IMG/VR virus record: IMGVR_UViG_3300036790_000386
Coordinates: 37,928 to 101,927 of that record
Reading direction: 5' to 3' (one strand)
Origin: a virus
Length of the DNA: 64,000 nt
Part shown: positions 34,522 to 64,000 of the stretch, piece after piece
Layout: every line of letters begins with the position of its first letter
How positions within the stretch are numbered: position 1 is the stretch's first letter
Position numbers and translations under genes: made by a program
Notes under the pieces: model-generated
Told to the model about the DNA's origin: nothing
What the model saw: the letters and a program-made list of their open reading frames with translations, nothing else
Databases searched by the model: none

Positions 34522-37500
34522 TTAAATGTGTTTGTTTAAGGCTCGCGTACCTTTAGGTACGATCCAAGTTCCTGGCTTTAAGACTCTTTCTTCAAGATCG
34601 CACGGAAAAGTAATTTTTGATGGAGAAGATAAAAATAGAATTTCTTCATCAGCTTTCGGCTGTTCACGTCCACGACGAATTCTAATTTCATTCATGAGAT
34701 GAACTACCTTTGCAACCTCTACTCTTTCTTTCCAACTTTCATATCTTGCAGTTTGTATTGCAAGCTGTTGTTCTTTGTCAATTTTAGCTTTACGTGCAAG
34801 TTTCTGCCATGTGGCCCATGTGCCACGACATGAAGTGACAATAAGACCAGCAACACACCTAGCAAGGTAATCAGATCCAGAGGAAAATACAGAATCGCGA
34901 CCTGCTTTAGTTATTGAACGTTCAAGATCGCCCATTTGATTGAGCATCTTAGCGTTTTCTAAGAGTTCTACTTCACCAGCCGCCAAAATTGGCATGAAAT
35001 CACGATAGATTTCAGGAAGCGTTAAAGAAGTTGGACTATAGATGATACCGTGAACGGAGAAATATTCTTTGGGCCAATTTCCACCAAAGTGATCACCTTC
35101 AATCTTTGCGATGCCATAGCTGCGCATAATAGAGCATATGTCAGCAATAGTTTTTTCAAGACTTTCTTGAATCGAATAATCTTTAACAAAATCTAACATC
35201 GCTACATTATCTTCAGCCATATGTGCGATAGCAAATGCTGGCCTCTCTGACGTTGACCCCGGTACGGCGAAGAAAGCAGAGTAAACTATGTTATTTGAAG
35301 GTGGCAGTTCAAGCCGGCCTTCAACTACGCAACGACCAATAACCCCACGCGAAGCATAAGAGGATTTAGTGAAGCTAGCTTTAATTTCATTCCACTTATA
35401 GCGCGCAAACGCCAAAGAGCAAACACAATCATCGTAAAGACCCTCGGGTGCTGTATATTTGATACCAGCGCGAGTGATTTCATAAGTGAAATCCTGCATT
35501 TCAGATTTAATCGGACCATCAGGAAAATGCACTTCATGAGTCTGAACCGACATCGCCAAACCTTCCATGAGGTTTTGCTTGGATGACGGATTTAAAATAT
35601 AACCTTCAAAGTTTTCGTAACCACCTTCTTGGAGTGACTCTAAAACTGGATCACCTAGCCCTGAACCATCAACAACACAAGGAGTGAGGTCACCAACGAT
35701 TTCTCTAACGAGTTTAACTGACTCTTTCCAAGATTTATTTTTCCAGCGATCAAAGTGGCAAACATAGCCATCTCGATCAAGACCAATGATAACGAACCAA
35801 GTTTTTTTACGAGCTAGATCAACTCCCCAAGCCACAGGAGACTCAGAACTAAGATTAGCAACACAGCGTAAAATATGGTCTTCACCGAATGGATTACCGT
35901 AATCGTCACTCGGCTCTGCAAGATAAAGTTCACGAAATACCGCATCTGGAAGTTGCTCTTTTAGGGATTTAACTTCAGAGTCTGACATAACACCACCTTC
36001 GATGGCGTCAAAAATTGTCAGTTTTGCGTAATGTAAATCGCTATCTTCTTCGTCCATCGTGGACTCAGCAAGACGCGCCATATTATAGAACCAGTTACGC
36101 TTTCCTTTAACGTTACCAATAATGATAGCAGCGCCTTGAGTCGCTGAAAGCGTAGAGCGAACAGCGTGCCAGGATAATTCCTTTACACGCGAAGCTTCAT
36201 CAATAACAGCACCATAAACATCTTCACCGAAAAGAGAATCAGGATTATCACCTGATTTAAACCAAAGAACAGCGCCATTCATTAAAGTTATTGTTTTGCG
36301 TTGTTCGTTAGTCATATAGCTGCCAGGAGTTAAATAGGTCTTCAACCGGCGAAAGGCAATATCAGCTTGATCTGAAATTGGAGCAACCCACCAATAGTTT
36401 CTATTGGTTGGGCCAAGCAAAGCCATTTCGGTAATCCAAACAATGGAACCGACGGTGTTATGTGTTGGTACGAAACCATTTGTAAGATACAGGTGTCTTG
36501 TATCTTCAACTTCAATACATTGCGCCTCCGCAATTCTAGAAAATTCAATTTTATTGAAAAATCTATTTCCAGTCTTCTTCATAGGCTTCATTAATTGAAG
36601 TTTACGAGGAAGCCTAAATGGAATAAGATTAGATGGCAAAATTAAAACTTGACGATAACGACCTCTACCGTGGCGCAATGTTCCAATTGGACTGCAATAT
36701 GACGCAGACTCATCATAAGTCTGTTTAACCATACCTCCTAAAGATTCTACAAGTTCTTTCACATCTTTTGCAAGTTGTTCAGAACTTTGTTCTAAGATTG
36801 GTTGGCCATGTTTATTTACTGATCCATCTGAATCCATAATTCCCTGAAGAATAGAAATTCTAATTTCCGTGGAATTATAAAGATAGGATATCGGAATAAA
36901 TTTCTGGTGAGAATAACAACCCCACAATTTCAGATTTTTTAAATAGCTGGCTATGTGTTGTTTTGCCTCTCTTATTTTAGCGGCAAATTTTCCACATGTA
37001 ATATGATAATCATACTGGTCTACGTGCCGCAAAAAATGGCCAGCAGGTAAGACTTTTTTAATTTCTTCTAAAATTTCAAAATCAGCAGAAGAAACTCTCA
37101 CAACTTCAGTTGTAAAATTGCCATCGCCAATAAGAATCCCTAAAAGATAAGGATCAATATCTATAGATTTAATTTCAAATTCAACTGGAGCACAATCAGG
37201 AACATATTGATACCTGAGCCAGCTACTTTTAAGATCTAAAAGTTCAGAAACTGCCCTAATTCTTGGTTTACCTTGATTATTATGAACTTCCCAAAGATGT
37301 TCTTTGTCGCATTCAACAATAGTTCCATCAACAAAAGTTATAGCATAAATCTCGCGCAAACCTTGCGGATGTATGGCTACAATTTTAGTAGCTTTACCAT
37401 TAGCTCCAAAAACAAAATCACCTACTTTCAGGTCTCCCATAAGTTTGGGACCTGCTGGTGTATAAATTTTTGAATCTAAAGGTTGAGCTTTACCTGCTTT

Positions 37501-37590
37501 TGAAGTTGCTTCAACTAGGGTAAATCGTTTGCCCGAAAATAGAGCGGCCTCTTGTTTCGGATACAACCCTGGTCTTGAATATTCAGGCAC
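34522..37590 (-). CDS. terL: Terminase large subunit with intein and degenerate second nuclease domain
   Basis: 1022 residues from a GTG. The Walker A motif EATSKAGK/T is interrupted after Lys34 by an intein (residues 35-378). The ATPase continues with WWVAPISDQADIAFRRL and Walker B AVIDEA (461-466). The packaging nuclease has WGVDLARKKTWFVIIG (Asp591), CVVDGSG (Asp641) and GLYDDCVCSLAFA (Asp720/721). Beyond it, residues 768-918 look like a second terminase nuclease fold (AFAIAHMAEDN, IEGDHFGGNWPKEYF, AAGEVELLENAKMLNQMGDL, GSDYLARCVAG) in which expected metal ligands are missing. Cleaves and translocates DNA into the prohead. Confidence 0.9.
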   Translation of the reverse strand: MPEYSRPGLYPKQEAALFSGKRFTLVEATSKAGKAQPLDSKIYTPAGPKLMGDLKVGDFVFGANGKATKIVAIHPQGLREIYAITFVDGTIVECDKEHLWEVHNNQGKPRIRAVSELLDLKSSWLRYQYVPDCAPVEFEIKSIDIDPYLLGILIGDGNFTTEVVRVSSADFEILEEIKKVLPAGHFLRHVDQYDYHITCGKFAAKIREAKQHIASYLKNLKLWGCYSHQKFIPISYLYNSTEIRISILQGIMDSDGSVNKHGQPILEQSSEQLAKDVKELVESLGGMVKQTYDESASYCSPIGTLRHGRGRYRQVLILPSNLIPFRLPRKLQLMKPMKKTGNRFFNKIEFSRIAEAQCIEVEDTRHLYLTNGFVPTHNTVGSIVWITEMALLGPTNRNYWWVAPISDQADIAFRRLKTYLTPGSYMTNEQRKTITLMNGAVLWFKSGDNPDSLFGEDVYGAVIDEASRVKELSWHAVRSTLSATQGAAIIIGNVKGKRNWFYNMARLAESTMDEEDSDLHYAKLTIFDAIEGGVMSDSEVKSLKEQLPDAVFRELYLAEPSDDYGNPFGEDHILRCVANLSSESPVAWGVDLARKKTWFVIIGLDRDGYVCHFDRWKNKSWKESVKLVREIVGDLTPCVVDGSGLGDPVLESLQEGGYENFEGYILNPSSKQNLMEGLAMSVQTHEVHFPDGPIKSEMQDFTYEITRAGIKYTAPEGLYDDCVCSLAFARYKWNEIKASFTKSSYASRGVIGRCVVEGRLELPPSNNIVYSAFFAVPGSTSERPAFAIAHMAEDNVAMLDFVKDYSIQESLEKTIADICSIMRSYGIAKIEGDHFGGNWPKEYFSVHGIIYSPTSLTLPEIYRDFMPILAAGEVELLENAKMLNQMGDLERSITKAGRDSVFSSGSDYLARCVAGLIVTSCRGTWATWQKLARKAKIDKEQQLAIQTARYESWKERVEVAKVVHLMNEIRIRRGREQPKADEEILFLSSPSKITFPCDLEERVLKPGTWIVPKGTRALNKHI
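36457..37488 (-). mobile_element. Intein with LAGLIDADG homing endonuclease in TerL
   Basis: 344 residues in frame. It begins AQPLDSKIYTPAG (Ala1 instead of Cys/Ser, seen in several phage inteins), has a splicing block B (GTIVECDKEHLWEV), two LAGLIDADG-type helices (YLLGILIGDGN at 148-158 and ILQGIMDSDGS at 247-257) and the terminal block LYLTNGFVPTHN followed by Thr379 of the host protein. Splicing would restore KAGKTVGSIVW and so the ATP-binding loop. Confidence 0.9.
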
Positions 37591-58128: not shown

Positions 58129-58200
58129 AAATATGCAGTAGCGTAGATTAGAATTTCATCATTGTACGAAAGATTCTATTCGCTTAATCTCTGCATATTT
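58129..58200 (+). ncRNA. Y RNA-like unit, short hairpin form 1
   Basis: AAATATGCAG and CTGCATATTT form a perfect 10-bp closing stem. Just inside lie TAGCGTAGA (5' side) and CGCTTAATCT (3' side), then a second stem TAGAAT/ATTCTA with an 18-base loop. AGCG and CGCT can pair, leaving TAATCT bulged. No T-arm. The two motifs repeat in the tRNA-like units further on. Confidence 0.6.
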
Positions 58201-58265
58201 AAATCTGAAATATACGAGCCAAGTACATAAGCAATAACTAGATAGTCGCGAAAGTGGCAATCTTA

Positions 58266-58335
58266 TCAAGCGGTAGCGTTAGATTGCAGTTACTTCAATG
58301 GATGAAAACAACTGTAATTGATTATTCTCCGTTGA
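58266..58335 (+). ncRNA. Y RNA-like unit, short hairpin form 2
   Basis: TCAA(G)CGG and CCGTTGA form a 7-bp stem with one bulged G. Inside are TAGCGTTAGATT on the 5' side and TTGATTATTCT on the 3' side, and an inner stem TTGCAGTT/AACTGTAA. Same plan and nearly the same length as the unit at 58129, with diverged motifs. Confidence 0.5.
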
Positions 58336-58740
58336 CTGAACTAGTGACCATATAGCGTCTGTGTGAGTTGCCATAGCCTATAATCAATTAAGACGCATTG
58401 GAAATTTAATCTACAAATGTATAATAATAACATTAGTAATGAAACCAGCAAGCAACACAAAAATAAATCAACAATTGTTTGCTGGTTCTTTTCAAACACC
58501 AATTTTAAATAACGCTGCAATAGCGTTCCACAGCGAGAATTCACTACTATAGTCAGTGCTTCTCTCTGTAGACAATCCTTTGCAAAAATCAAATACCACA
58601 GTATAAAGCGGATTTTTTAAAAATCGGCTAACGTGACTAGAAATCCGATTCATATCTTAACATACGTGTAATCGCTGCGTAATCTTTAAGTCATTTTTCT
58701 CTAAATCAGCCTATAGTTGTATTTCATCCTGTAAAGTAAA
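58336..58740 (+). other. Non-coding stretch of the RNA island with several hairpins
   Basis: No convincing gene. Visible: GCGTCT/AGACGC paired across about 30 bases near 58355-58405, the large hairpin at 58443, AACGC/GCGTT near 58508, and CGGATTT/AAATCCG near 58605-58650. Any of these may be further RNAs, but they lack the shared Y RNA-like motifs. Confidence 0.35.
58443..58493 (+). terminator. Terminator-like hairpin inside RNA island
   Basis: AACCAGCAAGCAA and TTGTTTGCTGGTT pair over 13 bases with one G-T pair around a 19-base A-rich loop, followed by CTTTTC. Could end a transcript of the first RNA units. Confidence 0.55.
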
Positions 58741-58804
58741 ATTATAGAACGTAGTGCATCTATTGTACATACAATCCCTCTAGGCTTTCTGTAGAAGCTA
58801 TAAT
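58741..58804 (+). ncRNA. Structured unit of unknown type
   Basis: ATTATAG and CTATAAT close a 7-bp stem, with ATTGTA/TACAAT and CTA/TAG pairs inside. The shared TAGCGTAGA motif is absent. The first bases AAATTATAGAACG match the 3' end of repeat copy 4. Confidence 0.3.
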
Positions 58805-58856
58805 AACAGCCAGTTAGATATATGTTTCACTCCAACAATAGGCATAAACAAAACAA

Positions 58857-59063
58857 ATGGAATATAAAAAGATATCTCTAACTGACTTCAAAAATAAAGT
58901 TGGGCCAACTTTACAAGATGTAGAAAAGGCGCCAATCGCTTTAACTGCTTATGGCAGACCAGCTTACATGCTTCTATCGCTAGTTGAATACAACAGATTA
59001 AAAGAAGCTGAAAGCATTACAAATGAAATTTTCGGTAAAAACTTGAAAGAAAATAAAGTTTAA
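58857..59063 (+). CDS. Orphan Phd/YefM-type antitoxin
   Basis: 68 residues. KKISLTDFKNKVGPTLQDVE, KAPIALTAYGRPAYMLLSLV and EYNRLKEAE are the normal order of Phd/YefM antitoxins (DNA-binding N-terminus, toxin-binding tail). No toxin gene adjoins it. It sits among the Y RNA-like units. Possible roles: neutralising a host toxin or repressing transcription of the island. Confidence 0.7.
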   Translation: MEYKKISLTDFKNKVGPTLQDVEKAPIALTAYGRPAYMLLSLVEYNRLKEAESITNEIFGKNLKENKV

Positions 59064-59073
59064 AGATAAAATT

Positions 59074-59268
59074 TTGTGAGTAGCGTAGACTCTCGATTTC
59101 ATCGTAAACTTTTGTTTAATGCTGAAGTGGTTCGAATCCACCGTTAAATAAAGAAACCATTGATGAGAACCTCGTTCACAACGAAGTATTCAAAATGTGC
59201 TAACTTTTTTATTTAAACGGCTGCAAGCTTGGTGGGCAGCAATTTCGAGGTCGCATAATCTCTCACAA
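59074..59268 (+). ncRNA. YrlA-type Y RNA-like unit 1 (tRNA-like module, large)
   Basis: TTGTGAG and CTCACAA close a 7-bp stem. Inside are TAGCGTAGA (5') and CGCATAATCT (3'), then CTCGA/TCGAG. The module holds a T-arm (GTGG-TTCGAAT-CCAC, 59127-59141), an acceptor-like stem (GTTAAATAAA/TTTATTTAAAC, closed by an extra hairpin) and a D-arm (GCTG...CAGC around AAGCTTGGTGGG, 59220-59240). T-arm precedes D-arm, as in bacterial Y RNAs and unlike tRNA genes. About 60 nt longer than the other two. Confidence 0.7.
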
Positions 59269-59286
59269 CTTCAAATGGAAAACACT

Positions 59287-59376
59287 ATGAAAAAGTATTT
59301 TAATTGGATATTGCTCATTGTAAGCATATCTATAATAACAGGCTTTGTAAGTCACATTCACACCTCTTCGCATTAA
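59287..59376 (+). CDS. Tiny membrane peptide in RNA island
   Basis: 29 residues: MKKYFNWILLIVSISIITGF then VSHIHTSSH. A basic start and one hydrophobic helix, like a small toxin or membrane peptide. AATGGAAAAC lies upstream. Situated between two RNA units, which recalls type I toxin arrangements; this is only a suggestion. Confidence 0.45.
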   Translation: MKKYFNWILLIVSISIITGFVSHIHTSSH

Positions 59377-59378
59377 GC

Positions 59379-59510
59379 GGGAAGCCGCAGATCAACTTGT
59401 AAACTGAAGCGTAAAGATTAGTAAACTAGACGCAATCCAGCAGCATTGATAACTTGATAGTTCCATGTTTCATTGTGTTTGATCTACACAAATATCAAGC
59501 GCGGCTTTCC
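59379..59510 (+). ncRNA. Structured RNA-like unit with GGAAGCCGC closing stem
   Basis: GGAAGCCGC and GCGGCTTTCC close a stem of nine pairs with one bulge. Inside, AGATCAA pairs with TTGATCT, and GCGT pairs with ACGC around AAAGATTAG. AAGCGTAAAGATTAG is close to the TAGCGTAGATTAG of the Y-like units. Classification is uncertain. Confidence 0.4.
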
Positions 59511-59528
59511 ACCTAATATAAAGAAAAC

Positions 59529-59666
59529 TAATCAAGTAGCGTAGAAATGGATTTCTTCATGGTGACAATAGGTCGTTGGTTCAAATCCAACTAGCAAGGG
59601 ATACCTAGCTATAGCTCAGTCAGGTAGAGCGATTGTATAGAGCCTTTTCGTCTGATCTCTTGATTA
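59529..59666 (+). ncRNA. YrlA-type Y RNA-like unit 2 (tRNA-like module)
   Basis: TAATCAAG and CTTGATTA close an 8-bp stem with TAGCGTAGA inside on the 5' side and CGTCTGATCT on the 3' side. ACAAT/ATTGT forms the stem that replaces the anticodon stem. The T-arm is GTTGG-TTCAAAT-CCAAC (59575-59591). An acceptor-like stem TAGCAAGG/CCTAGCTA is closed by a GATA tetraloop instead of free ends with CCA. The D-arm is GCTC-AGTCAGGTA-GAGC (59614-59630). This is the clearest copy of the permuted tRNA mimic of Y RNAs. Confidence 0.75.
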
Positions 59667-59692
59667 AATTTAACTCCAACAAAAGTAACAAA

Positions 59693-59857
59693 ATGACAAA
59701 GAAAGAAGCTCTTAAATTAATTGACAACCACAAAAACAAACTTATTAATCCAACCGAAATGCTTTCTTGGGTATATTTGCGTGTCATCATTCTAAATCTA
59801 AATGATGAAGTCTGGAAAACAGCATATAACGAAGCTTTGAAAATTCTTTCAGCTTAA
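59693..59857 (+). CDS. Hypothetical small protein between RNA units
   Basis: 54 residues from ATG 59693. A longer frame to 59633 would run through the 3' part of the RNA unit and has no ribosome-binding site. KKEALKLIDNHKNKLINPTEMLSWVYLRVIILNLND. The N-terminal KEALKLIDNHKNKLINPTEML-type sequence recurs in small phage proteins. Function unknown. Confidence 0.5.
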   Translation: MTKKEALKLIDNHKNKLINPTEMLSWVYLRVIILNLNDEVWKTAYNEALKILSA

Positions 59858-59860
59858 CTG

Positions 59861-59996
59861 CTCAAGTAGCGTAGATTAGAGTTACTCCTTTACATGGACG
59901 GGTTGCGGGTTCGAATCCCGCTTAGAGTTGCTAAGCGTCTCTAATAGTTTAATTGGATAAAATACGTAAAAGACTCTGATCGAATAATCTCTTGGG
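59861..59996 (+). ncRNA. YrlA-type Y RNA-like unit 3 (tRNA-like module)
   Basis: CTCAAG and CTTGGG close a 6-bp stem (one G-T pair). TAGCGTAGA (5') and CGAATAATCT (3') lie just inside, followed by AGAGT/ACTCT. The T-arm is GCGGG-TTCGAAT-CCCGC (59905-59921), the acceptor-like stem TTAGAG/CTCTAA is closed by an 11-base loop, and the D-arm-like segment is TAGTTTAATTGGATAAAATA. At 136 nt it matches unit 2 in length and plan. Confidence 0.75.
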
Positions 59997-60006
59997 ACTA
60001 AAGTTA

Positions 60007-60093
60007 ACAGATAGCGTAAATTAGAGATACTTCTAAACACTCAGTCTGGAAACATGATTTTTCATGTAAAACTCTAATTGATTAAACTTCTGT
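60007..60093 (+). ncRNA. Y RNA-like unit, short hairpin form 3
   Basis: ACAGA/TCTGT closing stem, then TAGCGTAAA (5') and TTGATTAAACT (3'), an inner stem TTAGAG/CTCTAA, and an apical hairpin ACATGA/TCATGT. No T-arm or D-arm. Lies 10 bases after unit 3. Confidence 0.55.
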
Positions 60094-63252: not shown

Positions 63253-64000
63253 GTGAAGAGCAATATAAAAAAGGAAACTGAAGTTAATTTTACACATGAA
63301 GGTGCGCGTGCAGCAAACATCAATGCAGAGCAGCAACTGCGCCGGTCTGTTATGAATTGCCTTCTCTTTGAGAAAGAATTCTACGAAGACGGTGTTGAAA
63401 TTGCTAATCGCATTAAATCTCTTGTTGCACAAGTTTCTCCGTCCAAGGTTGCAGCTATCGCAATCCAAGCCCGAGATGAAATGCATCTTCGCCATGTACC
63501 GCTCTACTTGGTTGCCTGCCTTGCAGGAGTTACCAGTGGCACAAATCTCGTATCCAACACGCTTGCACACGTTATTCAACGTGCTGATGAACTTTCTGAG
63601 TTTCTTGCCATTTATGCCAAAGTGAATGGAGTCAAGCCAAGCGAAATCAAACCGAAACTATCAAATCAAGTACGCAAGGGCCTTGCACAAGCTTTTACCA
63701 AATTCAGCGCTTACTCCCTAGGTAAATATAACCGAGACGCTGAAATCAAGCTTAGAGATGCGCTTTTTCTTTCACACGCTAAACCAAAAGACGCAGAACA
63801 AGCTCTCACCTGGAAGAAGCTAATAGACGGCACTCTTGAAACTCCTGATACTTGGGAAGTTTCTCTTTCCAGCGGAGCCGATAAAAAGGAAACATTTGAG
63901 CGATTAATTAAAGAAGGCAAGCTTGGCTATTTTGCCCTCATCCGCAATCTGCGCAACATGAGCGAAGCACATTGTGATTTTTCTTTGGTTCATGAAGCAA
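63253..64000 (+). CDS. rsr: Ro60/TROVE-domain protein (partial, C-terminus beyond window)
   Basis: 249 residues visible from a GTG with AGGAAA upstream; no stop before the window end. RRSVMNCLLFEKEFYEDGVE is the signature of the TROVE domain. Further matching blocks: AIQARDEMHLRHVPLYLVAC, HVIQRADELSEFLAIYAK, KGLAQAFTKFSAYSLGKYNR, TWKKLIDGTLETPDTWEV and YFALIRNLRNM. Ro60 forms a HEAT-repeat ring that binds Y RNAs on the outside and free 3' ends of misfolded RNAs in the hole. A C-terminal VWA domain would be expected beyond the window. Its genomic neighbours include the Y RNA-like cluster 3-5 kb upstream. Confidence 0.9.
   Translation, partial: MKSNIKKETEVNFTHEGARAANINAEQQLRRSVMNCLLFEKEFYEDGVEIANRIKSLVAQVSPSKVAAIAIQARDEMHLRHVPLYLVACLAGVTSGTNLVSNTLAHVIQRADELSEFLAIYAKVNGVKPSEIKPKLSNQVRKGLAQAFTKFSAYSLGKYNRDAEIKLRDALFLSHAKPKDAEQALTWKKLIDGTLETPDTWEVSLSSGADKKETFERLIKEGKLGYFALIRNLRNMSEAHCDFSLVHEA

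What the first reader, a model, noticed from the sequence alone, without database searches (positions are those of the whole stretch)
59529..59666. tRNA mimic with acceptor stem capped by GATA tetraloop
Unit 2 has a textbook T-arm and D-arm, but they come in reversed order and the acceptor stem TAGCAAGG/CCTAGCTA is capped by four bases, with no CCA. The place of the anticodon stem is taken by the stem with the shared motif. That is what the tRNA-like module of bacterial Y RNAs looks like, and it may attract tRNA-modifying enzymes or tRNA-targeting toxins.
Basis: partly seen in the sequence, partly recalled or inferred. Interest (0 to 1): 0.75.

Follow-up and report, generated by a model that had tools for sequence, protein, structure and literature searches.

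The report
Phage Y RNA mimicking rotated tRNA
A bacterial virus carries a small RNA shaped like a tRNA whose two halves are swapped and whose ends are sealed by a tiny loop, in a row of similar RNAs near the gene for the Ro-type protein that such RNAs are expected to bind; relatives in other phages and in bacteria often mimic even the anticodon arm.

Summary
Window 59529-59666 encodes T-arm, capped acceptor stem (TAGCAAGG-GATA-CCTAGCTA, 7 of 8 pairs) and D-arm in swapped order, without CCA, closed by an 8-bp stem. It is one of six units sharing a stem and internal-loop motif (58129-60093). The record encodes a Ro60/Rsr (TROVE) protein 3.6 kb downstream, cut by the window's end. A covariance model built from 33 related units of other phages and bacteria, none from the window, finds this unit at 68 bits, E 5e-17. 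In 80 genomes, model hits of 60 bits or more occur in exactly the 4 that have TROVE. Rfam's YrlA model scores it 29 bits against a cut-off of 69.

Unexpectedly, many relatives also carry a real anticodon arm: in 42 units chosen by length, U33 in 40, R37 in 41, covarying stem, 21 triplets. The window's unit is the other type: its Y stem continues the anticodon stem. Best mechanism: Rsr-bound tRNA mimic that docks tRNA-binding enzymes; boldest: anticodon-bearing decoys against tRNA-cutting defences. Function untested.

The parts
59529..59536 (+). closing stem P1, 5' strand (TAATCAAG)
   Evidence: pairs over 8 bp with 59659-59666
59537..59545 (+). 5' half of the shared Y-stem internal-loop motif (TAGCGTAGA), presumed Rsr site
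   Evidence: exact in four units of the array; counterpart GCGTAGA in other phage and bacterial units
59565..59569 (+). anticodon-stem position 39-43 (ACAAT)
   Evidence: 5 of 5 pairs with 59632-59636
59575..59591 (+). T-arm GTTGG-TTCAAAT-CCAAC
   Evidence: R1 and RF02553 alignments
59592..59611 (+). capped acceptor stem TAGCAAGG-GATA-CCTAGCTA
   Evidence: in relatives the acceptor stem covaries in 5 of 5 pairs and 72 of 106 distinct caps have 4 nt, 46 of them GNRA and 8 UNCG
59614..59630 (+). D-arm GCTC-AGTCAGGTA-GAGC
59632..59636 (+). anticodon-stem position 27-31 (ATTGT)
59648..59658 (+). 3' half of the shared motif (TCGTCTGATCT)
   Evidence: counterpart TCGNNTGTTCC in relatives
59659..59666 (+). 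closing stem P1, 3' strand
58129..58200 (+). array unit a: Y stem with a plain loop, no tRNA module
   Evidence: P1 10 bp, P2 8 bp, both motif halves
58269..58333 (+). array unit b: Y stem with a plain loop, no tRNA module
   Evidence: P1 5 bp, P2 10 bp
59074..59268 (+). array unit c: Y stem, T-arm 59126-59142 (4 of 5 bp), long acceptor stem read by eye, D-arm-like 59221-59239
   Evidence: R1 sees only its T-arm (9.4 bits, E 1.1)
59861..59996 (+). array unit e: permuted tRNA module; loop TTTACAT 59889-59895 resembles a tRNA-Val(UAC) anticodon loop
   Evidence: R1 67.0 bits, E 9.1e-17; only 3 of 5 stem pairs for the hairpin
60007..60093 (+). array unit f: Y stem with hairpin loop, no tRNA module
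63253..64000 (+). start of the Rsr/TROVE gene (459 aa in all; continues at the other end of the terminally redundant record)
   Evidence: PF05731 57.7 bits, cut-off 23

Best explanation
The unit encodes a phage Y RNA. The two ends pair into a stem whose conserved internal loop (5' TAGCGTAGA / 3' TCGNNTGATCT) is the presumed docking site for the Rsr (Ro60-type) ring protein encoded 3.6 kb downstream on the same strand. The other end is a rotated tRNA body: T-arm, acceptor stem closed by a tetraloop, D-arm, joined to the Y stem through the anticodon-stem position. Because the acceptor ends are sealed and lack CCA, it cannot be charged as a tRNA. It most likely acts as a handle on the Rsr ring that recruits or competes for tRNA-binding enzymes (PNPase and tRNA-modifying enzymes in the known bacterial systems); the other units give the same ring other effector heads. 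Shown here: anatomy, family membership by covariance model, linkage and co-occurrence with Rsr, covariation in relatives. Inferred: expression, Rsr binding and effector recruitment. I put about 0.93 on 'a Y RNA of an Rsr particle' and about 0.5 on the recruiting-handle mechanism.
For: Rsr gene with curated Pfam match. R1, made without window sequence, 68.0 bits, E 5e-17. R1 units at 45 bits or more in 31 of 41 TROVE-bearing viral and phage loci (19 of 29 not used for training) and at 46 or more in 64 of 80 bacterial TROVE loci (46 of 62 not used for training). In 80 genomes of one order, hits of 60 bits or more in exactly the 4 with TROVE, on the same contig just upstream (p 6e-7). Covariation in all five helices of 33 relatives (19 of 25 pairs changed on both sides; score 0.612 vs 0.192 shuffled, 0 of 500). 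Tetraloop caps. Published: YrlA mimics D, T and acceptor arms, its basal stem binds Rsr, its tRNA-like domain binds PNPase, and it is a substrate of DusA and TruB (PMC8394870, passages).
Against: No expression, binding or structure data for this phage. Own folding energy not significant. Rfam YrlA score far below cut-off (29.2 vs 69). P2 of this unit has only 4 of 6 standard pairs in the R1 alignment. The array lies 3.2-5.1 kb from Rsr, whereas in most relatives the units lie within about 1.5 kb. 10 of 41 viral loci with TROVE gave no such unit. The site of Rsr contact was not tested.
Confidence: 0.7

Rival explanations
1. Decoy: the same Y RNA serves mainly to soak up tRNA-cutting or tRNA-modifying host factors, for instance RNase toxins of phage defence; Rsr only stabilises or parks it.
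For: Arrays with several different tRNA modules per phage (CcrColossus locus L043: seven R1 hits between 1838 and 2926; window: three units with T-arm and D-arm-like elements). Many relatives keep an intact anticodon loop with 21 different triplets. The idea of YrlA as competitive inhibitor of an anticodon nuclease is in print (PMC7790460, passages).
Against: The window's unit lacks a free anticodon hairpin. In Salmonella no YrlA fragments were detected, so YrlA was not a substrate of the DNA-damage-induced nuclease (PMC7790460, passages). Bacterial chromosomes carry the same RNAs, so it is not only a phage trick.
Confidence: 0.2
2. Remnant of tandem tRNA genes: the 3' half of one tRNA followed by the 5' half of the next, with no function of its own.
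For: Tandem tRNA genes do give partial R1 matches (model positions 18-100) in several loci, and this is a plausible origin of the module.
Against: In relatives the two acceptor strands pair with each other and covary (93.9% of cells paired, 5 of 5 pairs changed on both sides), are capped by 4-nt loops in 72 of 106 cases, and sit inside a covarying Y stem; hits of 60 bits or more co-occur with TROVE in 4 of 4 vs 0 of 76 genomes.
Confidence: 0.04
3. A permuted tRNA gene that is cut and rejoined into a working tRNA, as in some algae and archaea (recalled).
For: Gene order of the halves is permuted as in those genes.
Against: Cap of only four bases, no CCA, no leader between the halves; the cut point carries a conserved Y stem; Rsr linkage.
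Confidence: 0.02

Closest known systems
YrlA bacterial Y RNA (Rfam RF02553; Salmonella YrlA, PDB 6CU1 as cited in PMC8394870)
   Same: Basal stem from the two ends, tRNA-like domain with T-arm, capped acceptor stem and D-arm in swapped order; stem in the anticodon position that continues the Y stem; Rsr gene nearby.
   Different: Sequence of the Y stem differs; 29.2 bits against a gathering score of 69. In 15 loci with such RNAs, Rfam reports no YrlA at its cut-off. Many relatives carry an anticodon hairpin for which the Rfam consensus has no room (structure line).
Phage Rsr/Y RNA loci (mycobacteriophages in Chen et al. 2014, as cited in PMC12282133, otherwise recalled; jumbo phages with TROVE, PMC7824862; Listeria phage CKA15, PMC12282133)
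   Same: A phage Rsr gene with candidate Y RNAs near by; in CKA15 highly transcribed regions lie upstream of it (passages).
   Different: The passages read do not describe arrays of several tRNA-like units or anticodon arms.
Deinococcus RYPER (Rsr-Y RNA-PNPase), as described in PMC8394870 and PMC7790460
   Same: Would work the same way: Y RNA as tether between the Rsr ring and a partner.
   Different: No partner is known here; PNPase binding not testable with these tools.

Membership tests
Y RNA of an Rsr particle (broad sense) | Rsr/Ro60 (TROVE) gene in the same genome, near by | tested here: met
   PF05731 57.7 bits, cut-off 23, gene starts at window 63253
Y RNA of an Rsr particle (broad sense) | Stem formed by the two ends with a conserved internal loop | tested here: met
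   P1 8 bp and both motif halves; six units; match over all 119 positions of R1
Y RNA of an Rsr particle (broad sense) | Physical binding to Rsr | not testable with these tools
   needs pull-down or cross-linking
YrlA, Rfam RF02553 | Score at or above the curated gathering score (69 bits) | tested here: not met
   29.2 bits for this unit, 29.1 for unit e; not filed under RF02553
YrlA, Rfam RF02553 | T-arm, capped acceptor, D-arm in swapped order, with the Y stem continuing the anticodon-position stem | tested here: met
   alignment to RF02553 positions 23-85
tRNA (Rfam RF00005 / ARAGORN) | Called as a tRNA, CCA end, open acceptor stem | tested here: not met
   no call at this unit; acceptor closed by GATA, no CCA
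Anticodon-arm-bearing class of these Y RNAs | Free hairpin with 7-nt loop, U33 and purine 37 between Y stem and T-arm | tested here: not met
   this unit 3 of 5 hairpin pairs but 5 of 5 for the YrlA-like stem

The most novel reading that the evidence does not exclude
Rsr-linked Y RNAs of phages and of many bacteria form a family in which whole tRNAs, anticodon arm included, are kept as rotated, sealed, unchargeable copies hung on a common Rsr-binding stem; phages line up several with different anticodons as decoys that absorb anticodon nucleases and other tRNA-directed defences, held by their own Ro ring.
Probability: 0.18. Interest if true: 0.87.

Novelty: new variant of a known kind. Interest (0 to 1): 0.6.

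Why it matters
It shows that a family of Rsr-linked tRNA mimics, seen here in many phages and bacteria, is missed by Rfam's YrlA model and partly called tRNA by standard tools. The anticodon-arm finding turns an open question, what the tRNA-like end of Y RNAs is for, into a direct test: 21 different anticodon triplets predict which tRNA-binding or tRNA-cutting enzymes should touch which Y RNA.

Tried and rejected
Single-sequence folding energy: not significant, not used as evidence. Exact motif pattern in viral contigs: 0 stretches with the short gap, 2 with the long gap; L041 has no TROVE match by tblastn and is taken as chance, L042 is a genuine unit beside a TROVE fragment. Nucleotide search in phages: only a 60-base match in the tRNA-Pro gene. 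R1 hits in the Microcystis phage (L048) overlap or adjoin tRNA genes annotated in tandem and were not counted. Agreement of anticodon with the rest of the tRNA body (isotype) was only looked at by eye: one unit looked consistent (L047 2561-2681, Glu-like), others did not (L043 2153-2304, L111 3110-3227); no claim is made. Whether the motif is the Rsr contact was not tested. Literature: ten searches turned up nothing on anticodon arms in Y RNAs in the listings and passages I saw, but the central papers (Chen 2014, Sim and Wolin 2018, Sim 2020) are not held, so I cannot say it is unpublished. Solved TROVE structures 9l5y and 9kop exist; no paper on them was found.

Full report
What is there. After the D-arm comes ATTGT, which pairs 5 of 5 with ACAAT just before AGGTC and the T-arm; this is the anticodon-stem position, and it runs on towards the stem with the shared motif. 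The folding energy of the unit alone is not special (z -1.09).

The array. A descriptor (closing stem of at least 5 bp next to TAGCGT, inner stem of at least 5 bp, 3' motif) finds six units on the + strand of the whole window, at 58129-58200, 58269-58333, 59074-59268, 59529-59666, 59861-59996 and 60007-60093, and one on the - strand elsewhere; a Markov-1 control gives 0.02 per 3 kb. Because the descriptor was written after seeing these units, it is a check on chance, not a discovery statistic. Three units (c, d, e) carry a T-arm and a D-arm-like element, three (a, b, f) carry plain loops.

The partner gene. The window is part of a 101,927-base virus record with a 127-base terminal repeat. TROVE (PF05731) is found at the window's end and continues at the start of the record; read across the join it is a 459-residue protein with 57.7 bits to TROVE, related by sequence to two solved TROVE proteins (E 5e-25). 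PHROGs profiles identify terminase, portal, major head protein, tail sheath, tape measure and baseplate proteins, so the record is a contractile-tailed phage.

Relatives. The protein led to 31 viral contigs, 84 of 50,697 phage records (nine of these were fetched) and, with an alignment of 11 phage proteins, 80 bacterial loci kept out of 181. A descriptor for the permuted module found 26 hits in the window and viral loci, a few of them visibly tandem tRNAs, and 78 hits in 57 of the 80 bacterial loci, mostly upstream of TROVE on its strand. From these I aligned 33 units chosen by hand for completeness and diversity, out of 71 extracted with usable length (78 extracted and 48 not extracted of 126 non-window units). 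All five helices covary: 93.8% of cells paired, 19 of 25 pairs with changes on both sides, score 0.612 against 0.192 in shuffles (0 of 500) and at most 0.138 when slid. The structure was drawn by me on this alignment, which favours it somewhat.

Membership. The covariance model R1 from these 33 sequences, none from the window, gives 68.0 bits (E 5e-17) at 59539-59659 and 67.0 bits (E 9.1e-17) at 59869-59991; the window's two true tRNAs reach only 25.6 and 24.8 bits over part of the model, and unit c only 9.4 bits. R1 finds units of 45 bits or more in 31 of 41 TROVE-bearing viral and phage loci and 46 bits or more in 64 of 80 bacterial ones; without loci used in training, 19 of 29 and 46 of 62. 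Ten viral loci lack such a hit. In 80 genomes of one bacterial order, TROVE is in 4 and R1 hits of 60 bits or more are in the same 4, on the same contig; three further genomes without TROVE have hits of 52.7-55.9 bits, one of them partial. Rfam's YrlA model gives 29.2 bits here against a cut-off of 69 and reports nothing at its cut-off in 15 loci of the family, while Rfam calls some of the RNAs tRNA. I therefore file the unit as an Rsr-linked Y RNA that is built like YrlA, not as a member of RF02553 as curated.

The sealed acceptor. Of 128 units, 110 had a recognisable capped acceptor (106 distinct); the cap has four bases in 72, of which 46 are GNRA and 8 UNCG.

The anticodon arm. Between the Y motif (UACUUC) and the T-arm many relatives have a hairpin. 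In the first set, a search blind to loop sequence found 16 perfect 5-bp hairpins with 7-nt loops among 55 units, 15 with U at position 33 and 16 with a purine at 37; shuffles give 3.0, 0.76 and 1.6 on average, at most 9, 4 and 7. In a second test I took all units whose motif-to-T-arm segment is exactly 25 nt, 42 distinct out of 128 units: U33 in 40, purine 37 in 41, A38 in 34, all five pairs in 27, four or more in 34; the inner two pairs form in 39 against a mean of 18.4 and a maximum of 28 when partners are exchanged. The innermost pair occurs as CG 27, AU 10, GC 4. Twenty-one different triplets stand in the anticodon position, UGU (8) and GUU (7) most often. Some near relatives are in the set, so the counts are not independent events. 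The Rfam YrlA consensus has only four unpaired bases there (structure line), and the review I could read describes YrlA as mimicking the D, T and acceptor arms (PMC8394870, passages).

Two classes. Of 97 units with a recognised D-arm and a long enough segment, 54 have the hairpin with at least 4 pairs (38 of them only that), 49 have the YrlA-like stem between the strand after the D-arm and positions 39-43 (33 only that; shuffled mean 15.5, maximum 26), 16 could form both and 10 have neither. The window's unit d is of the second class (5 of 5); unit e has a plausible anticodon loop but only 3 pairs in either stem.

How it works. From established work on Rsr particles (PMC8394870, PMC7790460, passages) the basal stem holds the Rsr ring and the tRNA-like end contacts a partner such as PNPase or tRNA-modifying enzymes. 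The same division is the best guess here; the sealed, CCA-less acceptor makes charging impossible, and several units with different heads would let one ring protein meet several partners. Steps shown: anatomy, family, linkage. Steps inferred: expression, Rsr binding, partners. Support that phage Y RNAs can be abundant comes from Listeria phage CKA15, where three highly transcribed regions lie within 2 kb upstream of an Rsr-like gene (PMC12282133, passages); the authors offer Y RNAs as one possible explanation.

Verdict. By itself the unit is a new member of a known kind in a phage context; the family it belongs to is a variant that Rfam does not cover and that contains a class with a full anticodon arm. 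I found no mention of that class in the open library (searches; listings and passages only), but the key primary papers were not readable here, and from memory Chen et al. 2014 reported Y RNAs near Ro60 in more than 250 bacterial and phage species, so priority is open.

Noticed in passing
window 58857-59060: A Phd/YefM-type antitoxin ORF (PF02604, 30.1 bits, cut-off 29.8) lies inside the Y RNA array between units b and c; no toxin partner was recognised.
   Followed up: partly
L043 2149-2216 (CcrColossus) and L046 2766-2840 (Brevundimonas phage Gurke): Deposited 'tRNA-Gln' and 'tRNA-Ser' annotations overlap strong R1 hits (93.4 and 94.8 bits): probably Y RNAs annotated as tRNAs.
   Followed up: partly
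window 59860-59929; L070 1589-1659; L111 3110-3172; ARAGORN calls in L011, L017 (2819-2887), L029, L030, L033 (3426-3497), L036, L046, L047: Rfam or ARAGORN calls parts of Y RNAs as tRNA genes.
   Followed up: partly
L012, L017, L035, L048: Tandem tRNA genes give partial R1 matches (3' half of one plus 5' half of the next), a plausible birth route of the permuted module.
   Followed up: no
L043 2641-2775 and 2816-2926, L045 2803-2938, L050 near 2741: Some units seem to mimic class II tRNAs, with a long variable arm or a Leu/Ser-like D-arm (read by eye).
   Followed up: no
L050 1700-2900 (Rhizobium phage RHph_TM30), L035 6900-8010, L033: Other phages have arrays that mix tRNA-like units and plain-loop units sharing the Y stem.
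   Followed up: partly
window 34522-37587 (-) and L007 10850-12784 (+): Terminase and DNA polymerase ORFs seem to contain intein-like insertions (by eye; PHROG hits to unrelated families over the insert of the terminase).
   Followed up: no
L007 7279-8775: A ParB-like N-terminus fused to a DNA methyltransferase.
   Followed up: no
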